41,272 bases of DNA from Eximiradius proteiniborus (lineage in GTDB: Bacteria > Bacteroidota > Ignavibacteria > Kapaibacteriales > UBA2268). The stretch is from assembly GCA_026415495.1 (NCBI GenBank), contig JAOAGZ010000017.1, positions 1 through 41,272 on the forward strand, in the 5' to 3' direction. Below the pieces are notes generated by a model. It had not been told where the DNA came from. It ran no database searches and was given only the letters and a program-made list of their open reading frames with translations. This document shows, one piece after another, positions 11,746-15,514 of this stretch (positions are counted from its first letter, which is position 1; every line of letters starts with the position of its first letter). A program made the translations under genes and the position numbers.

Positions 11746-12318
11746 ATGAAAAAAGTTTTTCTTGACTACGTTTTAAAAGTTCGTCTACCGGTAACACTCT
11801 TTGTAATATTGGGTGCATTTGCAGTAACTTATTATGTGGCAAGACCCGAGCGGGACGGAATAGGTTATGAACCTGAACAGCCTATTGCGTTTTCGCATCG
11901 TTTGCATGCCGGAAATATGCAAATTGATTGTCGGTATTGCCACACAAGCGTGGAGAAATCGCGGCACGCAAGCATCCCGGCAGCGAACATTTGTATGAAT
12001 TGCCACTCTGTGGCTCGCAAGGATAAGCCTGAGATTGTGAAGCTCACAAGGTATTACGAGCAGAACAAGCCAATTCCCTGGAAGCGAATCCACAAGGTAC
12101 CGCACTATGCTTATTTTAGTCATCAGTCGCACGTAACACAAGGTATTCCTTGCCAATCCTGCCACGGAGCAGTAGAGAATATGGATGTTGTTATGCAGGT
12201 GAACTCATTTACAATGGGAAGCTGCATAGAATGCCACAGAAACCCCAACAGCCGACTTCCAAAAAATTCACCGAAAATGAAAAGTGGTCCTGTTCATTGT
12301 AACGCTTGCCACAGATAA
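11746..12318 (+). CDS. actA: Alternative complex III subunit ActA, pentaheme c-type cytochrome
   Basis: N-terminal TM helix; five CxxCH motifs (CRYCH, CMNCH, CQSCH, CIECH, CNACH); first gene of an ACIII cluster. Confidence 0.93.
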   Translation: MKKVFLDYVLKVRLPVTLFVILGAFAVTYYVARPERDGIGYEPEQPIAFSHRLHAGNMQIDCRYCHTSVEKSRHASIPAANICMNCHSVARKDKPEIVKLTRYYEQNKPIPWKRIHKVPHYAYFSHQSHVTQGIPCQSCHGAVENMDVVMQVNSFTMGSCIECHRNPNSRLPKNSPKMKSGPVHCNACHR

Positions 12319-12327
12319 GGAGGAATT

Positions 12328-12501
12328 ATGAAAGGGAATAAGCGAAATTTTATTAAGAAAGCCACTCTTGGTGTGTTTTCGTTACCTCTAATCAGCAGCA
12401 TTAATTTCGAGAGTATTGTTAAAAAAGTATCTAACCCGAAAAAGCCAAGAACGAAAGTGAAAATCAACTCCTATGCTATAAAAAGAAATACAGGAGAATA
12501 A
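12328..12501 (+). CDS. Small 57-aa protein with Tat-like N-terminus between actA and actB (uncharacterised)
   Basis: AAGGAGGAATT-ATG Shine-Dalgarno start; translates to MKGNKRNFIKKATLGVFSLPLISSINFESIVKKVSNPKKPRTKVKINSYAIKRNTGE*; stop is 4 nt before the actB ATG, whose own RBS-like AGGAG lies within its 3' end. Below the 60-aa cutoff of the ORF track. Confidence 0.65.
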   Translation: MKGNKRNFIKKATLGVFSLPLISSINFESIVKKVSNPKKPRTKVKINSYAIKRNTGE

Positions 12502-12505
12502 GCGA

Positions 12506-15500
12506 ATGAAGAATTTTTTCAACTTATTAAAGAATAAATCTGAATTTAGTAGAAAATCAAAAACCGCACCTGAACTGAAGAAAATGTCTGCAGAAAGCCG
12601 GAGGCGTTTTCTTGCCCTGATGGGTGCGACCGCGGCAGTTACAGCAACTGCCTGCAAAGACTACCGCGACAAAGGCAAAATTATCACTTACAATAAAAAA
12701 CCACAGGATGTAACATACGGAAAGGCAAACTATTACGCATCGACTTATCGCGATGGCTCGCCAATTCTGATAAAAACACGTGAAGGACGTCCAATTGGAA
12801 TTACTGGTAATGATATTCATCCTGTAAGTAAAGGCAAAGTCTCGATTCAAGCAGAAGCGAGCATATTAGATTTATACGACCCGGAACGATTGAAATTCCC
12901 TCTGAAAAATGGTAATAAAAACGAATGGAAAACTGCAAACAATGAAATTATGCAGAGGCTGCAGGATATTTCAGCAAAAGGAAAAGAAATTGCCGTAATT
13001 ACGGGCAAGATCAATTCCCCCACTTATGCAAAATTATTAGAAGATTTTGCGAGTAAATATCCGAATGCAAATGTTTATCCGATAGAACTATTTAGCGATA
13101 GGAATAGAAGGTTAGCATGGACTGCGTGTTATGAAAGCAATGAATATCCGGCTATTGACTGGAGCAAAGCAAATATTATTGTTGCAGTCGAAGCCGATTT
13201 GTTTGCAACAGATGGAGTTCCTGCTGAACAAATAAACGAAATCACTAAACGAAGAAGTGGTGAAAAAGCTGAAAATTTCAACAGAATATATGCAGTTGAA
13301 GCGAGTATGTCTTTGGTAGGAGCAAATGCAGATTATCATATAAGGGTTCGCCCGAGTGTGTATTACCCGCTTTTGCTTGCTATTTACAATGATTTAGTGA
13401 ATAAATTAGCACCATTTGGGCATACTCCAATAGGAGATTATTCACTTGAAAAAATAATTAATGAGAATAAATTAAATCACAAGCAAATTAATGCATTAGT
13501 TAATGATTTACTTAATAATCAGGGTAAATCAATAATATATGTCGGCGATAATTTACCGGTGCAAATTCATATAATAGCAAATTTTATTAATGATATACTT
13601 TCGGCATATGAATTATATGACTATAATTCAAGTTACGTCGAGTTCTTCAAGATATTAGAACCTGCCGGCATTGATAATTTAATTGCAAGAATGAAGCAAG
13701 GCGAGATTGGTGCTGTAATTTTTGCTGATACAAACCCAGCATATTATTTGCCGCCAGATTTTGATTTTCAAGGTGCTCTAAAAAATATTGAGCTTAAAAT
13801 TTCATTAACAGAAAAAGAAAATGAGACTTCGAAACTGTGCAATTACACACTTCCGATAAATCACCCATTCGAAAGTTGGGGCGATTATCAGTCGCAAAAA
13901 AATATAATAAATTTACAACAACCAGTAATAGAGCCAATATTTGACACCCGTCAGAAAGAAGCGATATTGCTTAGCTGGATAAATGGAAAAAATGTGGAAT
14001 ATTCTTTCGATATGTATCATCAATATCTGAAAAACAGGTATTCAGAAATTGCAAAACAATTGAATGTCCAGGATTTTGAAAGTTTTTGGTATAGTGCTTT
14101 GCACGATGGATTTATTCAGTTGAGTAGCAGCGAAAAAACAATAGCAAAGCCAAAGTTAATTATTTTGAGACAAACTGAAAATCCAATTAATGACAGCGGA
14201 ATTTCGATTGTATTGAAAAAGAGTCCGTTAATTGGCGACGGCAGATATGCGTCGAATGGATGGTTGCAGGAAATTCCTCATCCGGTTTCGAAAATTGTAT
14301 GGGATAATTATGCTGCAATATCACCGAACACTGCAAAACGCTATGGCTTGGACTACAAAGATTTCAAAAGTTCAGTAATTAAAATTTCTGTAAGCAAAAA
14401 GGAAATAACAATACCAATACTTTTGCAACCGGGCGTTGCAGAAGATACGCTTATCATTGAACTTGGATATGGACGGAAAGAGGCTGGAACAATTGGTTCA
14501 GGAGTAGGGATTGATGCAATTCCACTTATGGATAAAACGCTTTCGGTTGTTTTGTCTGGTGCAAAAATCGAGAAAACCGGGAAAAAATATAAGTTGTTTG
14601 GGACGCAGGAATTTCACAAGCTCGAAGATGAGTATTTGAAGGATCTTCATCGGAAGCGTCAATTAATTCAGGATGGAACGGTTGCAATGTATTTGAGCAA
14701 TCCGGATTTCATTCAGAATCAAAGAATAATGAACGAAGAAGAAATAGAAAAGCACAGTGTAAATCCACCGCATAATTATCCTGAAGCCAAATGGGCAATG
14801 GCAATTGATCTGAGCCGTTGTGTCGGTTGCTCGAATTGTGTTGCTGCGTGCAATGTCGAAAACAATATTCCTATAGTTGGGAAGGAAGAATGCGGTAACG
14901 GTCGAGAAATGCACTGGATGAGAATAGACAGGTATTATAGCGGAACAAACGAAGAGCCAATTGTTAGTTACTTGCCAGTAATGTGTCAGCATTGCGATAT
15001 GGCACCGTGCGAAAATGTTTGCCCTGTGGTAGCAACAACCCATAGCACAGATGGACTGAACCAAATGACATATAACAGGTGTGTGGGAACCCGCTATTGT
15101 GCGAACAATTGCCCGTATAAAGTCAGACGTTTCAATTTCTATGATTTTCGACATCGCTATGCAGATGGCTACTACGAGCAAGACAGTTTAGAATTGCTAC
15201 ATAACCCAGAGGTTACAGTTCGCTCACGCGGAGTGATGGAAAAATGCACATTTTGCGTTCAGCGTATTGCAGAAGCAAGGCAAGATGCAAAATCGAAAGG
15301 CAAAAAATTCACCGGTTCGGAGGTTCGCACAGCTTGCCAAGAGGCTTGTCCGGCAAATGCAATAGTATTTGGTAATGTAAATGACCCGAATTCAGAAATA
15401 TCGAAATTAATGAAAAACAAGCTTGGATATAAGCTAATTGAAGTATTGGGGATAAAGCCCAATGTTACTTACCTTGCTAAATTAAGGAACACAAATTCGG

Positions 15501-15514
15501 AGGACTTAACGTGA
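12506..15514 (+). CDS. actB: Alternative complex III subunit ActB (molybdopterin-oxidoreductase-like domain plus FeS-cluster domain)
   Basis: 1002 aa; [21 protein letters not shown] (twin-arginine signal with lipobox-like Cys); C-terminal ferredoxin-type motifs [53 protein letters not shown]...CQEACP. Confidence 0.95.

What the first reader, a model, noticed from the sequence alone, without database searches (positions are those of the whole stretch)
12328..12501. Undetected 57-aa ORF with Tat-like N-terminus nested between actA and actB
MKGNKRNFIKKATLGVFSLPLISSINFESIVKKVSNPKKPRTKVKINSYAIKRNTGE has its own strong SD (AAGGAGG), is spaced 9 bp after actA and 4 bp before actB, and carries the RBS-like sequence of actB in its 3' end. 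The KRNFIKK-hydrophobic-SINFES pattern resembles a Tat signal peptide (RRxFLK variant) followed by only about 30 basic residues. Canonical ACIII descriptions list ActA-G; I know of no such small subunit. It could be an ACIII accessory subunit, an assembly factor, a Tat co-passenger, or a translational-coupling leader.
Basis: partly seen in the sequence, partly recalled or inferred. Interest (0 to 1): 0.62.

Follow-up and report, generated by a model that had tools for sequence, protein, structure and literature searches.

The report
Overlooked small protein of alternative complex III
Between two genes of a bacterial respiratory enzyme (alternative complex III) lies a tiny, real, protein-coding gene that almost every relative of this bacterium keeps in exactly that place, and that is missing from published lists of the enzyme's parts; it probably makes a small membrane-anchored part or helper of the enzyme.

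Summary
The 57-codon ORF at 12328-12501 is real and conserved. Of 136 class-level genomes with this ActB type, 122 carry it directly upstream of actB. Most of the rest are diverged copies or split contigs, leaving about five true absences. It never occurs full-length elsewhere in a genome. It lies between actA and actB in three further lineages as well. Selection acts on the protein: dN/dS is 0.14-0.33 in 12 close pairs, and a C-terminal motif, V-K-I-[HN]-P-x-A-[VI]-K-R-N, ends in an Arg present in all 48 aligned members. ActB has its own Tat signal, so this is not a split ActB. Pfam, NCBIfam and PDB chains (including solved ACIII complexes) contain no full-length relative. The N-terminus resembles a Tat signal, but only 20 of 48 members have RR (18 RK, 7 KR). 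With no cleavage site or lipobox evident, I read it as an uncleaved, Rieske-like Tat-type anchor with a short basic periplasmic tail. It is best explained as an accessory subunit of this ACIII clade, or else an assembly factor, lost at least four times. Direct experimental evidence is lacking. Cultured Melioribacter roseus P3M-2 carries it unannotated, so it can be tested.

The parts
11746..12318 (+). actA, pentaheme cytochrome c subunit of ACIII (190 aa, five CxxCH, ends ...CNACHR)
   Evidence: ORF, heme motifs, Pfam Cytochrome_C7; homologous to ActA throughout the relatives
12317..12323 (+). Shine-Dalgarno-like AAGGAGG of the small ORF, overlapping the actA stop
   Evidence: sequence; identical in same-genus L004 and L005
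12328..12501 (+). small ACIII-associated gene, 57 aa (pI about 10.9, no Cys)
12340..12351 (+). twin-basic K5-R6-N7-F8, the Tat-like motif (F8 in at least 90% of members; pair RR 20, RK 18, KR 7 of 48)
12352..12402 (+). weakly hydrophobic signal/anchor segment (residues 9-25); AlphaFold2 helix 2-23
12457..12489 (+). C-terminal conserved motif V44-K-I-N-S-Y-A-I-K-R53-N (family consensus VKIHPxAVKRN, R53 invariant)
12492..12496 (+). AGGAG, likely ribosome-binding site of actB, inside the small ORF's last codons
   Evidence: sequence; inference
12506..15514 (+). actB, 1002 aa, with its own Tat signal ([20 protein letters not shown]), so not continued by the small ORF

Best explanation
The ORF encodes a conserved accessory protein of one large clade of alternative complex III. 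I infer that an N-terminal Tat-type signal is not cleaved and anchors it in the cytoplasmic membrane (N-in, C-out), as the Tat signal-anchor of bacterial Rieske proteins does. Its basic tail of about 30 residues then lies on the periplasmic side, where the HPxAVKRN motif clips onto the ActB/ActA/ActC assembly (ActB is the likeliest contact) and stabilises or helps build it. Translation is coupled to actA and actB. Shown: a real protein-coding gene under purifying selection, strict one-per-genome linkage to actA-actB, the conserved motif, and repeated loss. Inferred: membrane topology, Tat routing, physical membership in the complex, and contact partner.
For: Present next to actB in 122 of 136 genomes and never full-length elsewhere in the genomes searched. 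Always between actA and actB in three other lineages. In the ActB tree, 48 of 54 rows of one 100%-supported clade carry it. dN/dS 0.14-0.33. HPxAVKRN motif with invariant Arg. Hydrophobic segment 1.48 on the Kyte-Doolittle scale, near ActB's Tat signal (1.33) and below ActA's membrane helix (2.18). Weak profile hits fall mainly on Tat signals and Rieske Tat anchors. No Cys (1 of 48 members has one), and by inspection no AxA cleavage site in the window protein. The genome has TatC. Mature ActB is near-neutral/acidic (pI 6.9, net -2) whereas ActA is basic (+9), and the tail has pI 10.5. Known ACIII complexes already carry lineage-specific extra subunits such as R. marinus ActH (PMC5928083).
Against: No proteomic or structural evidence. 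RR is not conserved (RK in 18 of 48), so Tat use is doubtful for many members. Basic residues on both sides of the segment leave topology open. At least four independent losses show that it is dispensable. Convergent changes in other Act subunits after loss, which would have pointed to the partner, are not significant.
Confidence: 0.6

Rival explanations
1. It is an assembly or translocation factor, not a final subunit: a Tat-signal mimic that helps the Tat machinery or escorts ActB during cofactor loading and export, then leaves.
For: Tat-like N-terminus next to a Tat-exported, Fe-S-loaded subunit; relaxed twin-basic motif; translational coupling to actB; weak matches to NF038009 'TatB_1' and TIGR02811 in the N-terminal half; dispensable in several lineages.
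Against: The tail motif is at least as conserved as the Tat-like part, which suggests a persistent binding site. No chaperone-like globular domain. NF038009 scores are about 17 bits against a cut-off of 100.
Confidence: 0.27
2. It is a membrane-bound peptide whose tail stays in the cytoplasm, inserted by YidC/Sec, and stabilises the cytoplasmic face of ActC/ActD/ActF.
For: Basic residues after the hydrophobic segment would, by the positive-inside rule, favour a cytoplasmic tail (net +6). RK pairs are poor Tat signals.
Against: Tat-strength hydrophobicity and the F after the basic pair. Basic c-regions are normal in Tat signals. Neighbours ActA and ActB are periplasmic.
Confidence: 0.08
3. It is only a translational-coupling leader for actB, or a chance ORF.
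For: actB's ribosome-binding-like site lies inside it; 17 of 51 members overlap actB by 4 nt.
Against: dN/dS 0.14-0.33, invariant Arg and the HPxAVKR motif across phyla, no excess RNA structure (z 0.93), and lineages without it still have ActA-ActB order.
Confidence: 0.03
4. It is a former N-terminus of ActB, split off by a frameshift or sequencing error.
For: Both begin with a Tat-like stretch and are adjacent.
Against: ActB has its own start, Shine-Dalgarno-like site and Tat signal in the window and in relatives, and both occur side by side in over 100 genomes.
Confidence: 0.01

Closest known systems
ActH of Rhodothermus marinus ACIII (Rmar_1979)
   Same: Small extra ACIII subunit found only outside the canonical ActA-G list; contacts ActA, ActB and ActE (PMC5928083).
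   Different: ActH is an all-helical periplasmic protein with a three-helix bundle of about 30-residue helices, and no homologues outside close relatives were reported. The present protein is 50-80 aa, one helix plus tail, in a different lineage and with no sequence match.
ActG
   Same: Small ACIII protein with one predicted transmembrane helix, not present in all clusters (PMC5928083).
   Different: Reported absent from M. roseus (PMC3534657). No ACIII chain in the PDB matches our profile. The gene position differs.
TIGR02811 'formate dehydrogenase region TAT target'
   Same: Small Tat-signal-like protein encoded beside subunits of a large exported redox enzyme, with a conserved short C-terminal region (the C-terminal description is from memory).
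   Different: Only N-terminal, sub-threshold matches (best E 0.01, about 13 bits against a cut-off of 48). The partner complex differs.
Rieske iron-sulfur protein N-terminal Tat anchor
   Same: Weak N-terminal profile matches. In Rieske proteins the uncleaved Tat signal acts as the membrane anchor (established knowledge).
   Different: No Rieske domain, no Fe-S ligands, only a short tail.

Membership tests
ACIII accessory subunit (works with ACIII) | Gene always linked to ACIII genes | tested here: met
   122 of 136 adjacent; no full-length copy found elsewhere; other phyla too
ACIII accessory subunit (works with ACIII) | Present in the purified complex | not testable with these tools
   No proteomics or structure of an ACIII from this clade was available to search
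Tat substrate / Tat signal | Twin-arginine S-R-R-x-F-L-K motif | tested here: inconclusive
   RR 20, RK 18, KR 7 of 48; F at +2 in 44 of 48; the window has KR
Tat substrate / Tat signal | Weakly hydrophobic h-region, less than a Sec-type membrane anchor | tested here: met
   Median 1.48 against 1.33 (ActB Tat) and 2.18 (ActA helix)
Tat substrate / Tat signal | Host has Tat machinery | tested here: met
   TatC twice over the cut-off in the genome
TIGR02811 formate_TAT | Score above the curated cut-off over the full length | tested here: not met
   About 13 bits against 48.45 in the members scanned singly, N-terminal part only
NF038009 TatB_1 | Score above the curated cut-off | tested here: not met
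   About 17 bits against 100 in the members scanned singly
ActG / ActH / other chains of solved ACIII | Sequence relation to a chain in the PDB | tested here: not met
   Profiles A1 and A2 hit no ACIII chain at E up to 10, although ActB finds 8k9e, 6lod, 6f0k and 6btm
Any Pfam family | Match above the gathering score | tested here: not met

The most novel reading that the evidence does not exclude
A clade-defining, previously unrecognised small subunit of alternative complex III, present in nearly all Ignavibacteria-type ACIII and in a few other phyla: a domain-less Tat signal used purely as a membrane anchor that presents a conserved HPxAVKRN peptide to clamp ActB/ActA onto the membrane module. 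ACIII in these bacteria would thus have a constant extra part that every gene list read here has missed.
Probability: 0.5. Interest if true: 0.7.

Novelty: new variant of a known kind. Interest (0 to 1): 0.6.

Why it matters
ACIII replaces cytochrome bc1 in many bacteria, and its mechanism and full subunit list are unsettled. R. marinus ACIII already contains ActH and one unassigned periplasmic density (PMC5928083). A near-universal, unannotated 50-80 aa protein in a whole class of ACIII-bearing bacteria, with a sharply conserved motif and independent losses, gives structural biologists a concrete chain to look for. It would also be a clean example of a Tat-type signal kept as an anchor without a cargo domain. 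Because the gene is in cultured Melioribacter roseus, whose aerobic proteome has been measured (PMC5492636), it can be checked soon.

Tried and rejected
Split or frameshifted ActB: rejected, because ActB has its own start and Tat signal. RNA element: no excess folding. Tail motif fused into ActA, ActB or ActC of lineages lacking the gene: none found. Link to the downstream cox cluster: lineages without the gene keep the same cox genes. Relocation of the gene in lineages without it: no full-length match elsewhere, nor in their second ActABC-like cluster (28 failed on a file name). Convergent changes in partner subunits after loss: not significant; ActA P119 is the only hint. Homology to solved ACIII chains: none. 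AlphaFold2 of the small protein: helix 2-23, helix 27-35, extended tail, mean pLDDT 78 but pTM 0.27, so uninformative on contacts.

Full report
WHAT IS THERE. The window carries an alternative complex III (ACIII) cluster: actA, a 57-codon ORF, actB, actC, a fused actDE, actF, a cytochrome c, SCO and cytochrome oxidase genes. The ORF at 12328-12501 is exactly as described: AAGGAGG at 12317-12323, 9 nt after the actA stop, 4 nt before actB. ActB has its own start and Tat signal ([20 protein letters not shown]), so the ORF is not a broken-off piece of ActB.

IS IT A GENE. ORF length proves nothing here (one search lists 53 ORFs of 50 aa or more in 14 kb). I therefore extracted the actA-actB junction from 111 loci fetched with ActB. 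Nearly all Ignavibacteria-type relatives have a 50-80 aa ORF in the same slot with the same layout. Forty-eight were aligned (A1): consensus xRRKFFxxxGxG...P...VKIHPxAVKRN, with Arg53 in all 48 and Phe8 in 44. Twelve close pairs give dN/dS 0.14-0.33, against 0.03-0.07 for actA and actB. Substitutions favour third positions, and in all three same-genus pairs there are fewer amino-acid changes than a neutral shuffle gives (P 0.006, 0.02 and <0.001). The RNA folds no better than shuffles.

HOW WIDESPREAD AND HOW TIGHTLY LINKED. In the family (54 genomes) the strong full-length matches are one per genome. In 294 genomes of the class, 136 have a well-scoring ActB in the list used, and 122 of these have the profile match directly upstream on the same strand. 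Of the other 14, three have it on another contig. Six (G066, G134, G211, G222, G274, G276) hold a diverged copy that still ends in HPxAVxR or HPxSVKR. That leaves G003, G004, G037, G039 and G292 (G292 checked). The 23 non-adjacent matches are N-terminal Tat-signal-only matches (9) or probably lie where ActB is split across contigs or reported in pieces (14); adjacency was checked for three of these, the remaining 11 were not checked one by one. Outside the class no full-length match was found in the phylum sample. Full-length copies do occur in the Sericytochromatia class (5 of 18), the phylum of L053 (4 of 40) and Elusimicrobia (L067, L068), every one between actA and actB. In an ActB tree, 48 of 54 members of one fully supported clade carry the gene. 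The six without it fall in at least four places, so it has been lost repeatedly. The two Elusimicrobia copies lie in another clade, and their homology is less certain.

WHAT IT LOOKS LIKE. Twin-basic residues, an F two residues on, a weak Gly-rich hydrophobic stretch, often a Pro, and a basic tail of about 34 residues. Twin pairs are RR 20, RK 18, KR 7 of 48; only one member has Cys. The hydrophobic stretch (1.48) resembles ActB's Tat signal (1.33) rather than ActA's membrane helix (2.18). The outside matches of the profile are weak and N-terminal, mainly Tat signals, including Rieske proteins, whose uncleaved Tat signal is their membrane anchor. No chain of a solved ACIII matches, although ActB finds those entries. 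AlphaFold2 gives helix 2-23, helix 27-35 and an extended tail at moderate confidence. The genome has TatC, twice.

MECHANISM. Best explanation (0.6): an accessory ACIII subunit, Tat-type anchor in the membrane, tail motif bound to the periplasmic side of the complex. The basic tail (pI 10.5) and the charge of mature ActB (net -2) against ActA (+9) make ActB the likelier contact; this is inference. Main rival (0.27): an assembly or translocation factor for ActB. Less likely: cytoplasmic tail (0.08); pure leader peptide (0.03). A search for convergent partner changes after loss was not significant, and the downstream oxidase cluster does not explain the losses.

KNOWN OR NEW. The literature read lists ActA-G plus ActH in R. 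marinus (PMC5928083). ActH is a different, helical-bundle protein. M. roseus P3M-2 was annotated actA = Mros0045 directly followed by actB = Mros0044, with ActG not found (PMC3534657). A genome here of exactly its published length, 3,300,414 bp, carries the small ORF between the two, so the gene had been missed. Not every ACIII structure paper is in the library (the Roseiflexus ACIII paper was not found), so a description elsewhere under another name cannot be excluded; PDB sequence searches argue against identity with any modelled chain.

LIMITS. No expression, topology or interaction data. Tat dependence is unproven and may differ among members. Genome handles are anonymous; the M. roseus identification rests on exact genome length and gene position.

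Noticed in passing
L124-L129 (genomes G003, G004, G005, G018, G035, G037): A second, about 30% identical ActA-ActB-ActC-like cluster without the small ORF. All family genomes that lost the small gene carry such a second cluster, but independent pairs are too few to test this.
   Followed up: partly
window 11746-12318, ActA residue P119: Conserved Pro of ActA (KVPHYAYF) is Gly or Ala in three of four lineages that lost the small gene; a possible contact hint, overall not significant.
   Followed up: partly
window 12506-12625: The cytosolic N-terminal extension of ActB in this genus lacks the FWKSL...EF element found in most relatives just before the Tat signal.
   Followed up: no
G000:C150:7-636 and G000:C120:12611-13240: Two TatC genes in the window's genome assembly (5% contamination estimate, so one may be foreign).
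   Followed up: no
L066:4746-4931: Riflebacteria locus has an ORF between actA and actB ending APPGSVRRR, similar to the Elusimicrobia tails, but without a hydrophobic segment; unclear whether related.
   Followed up: no
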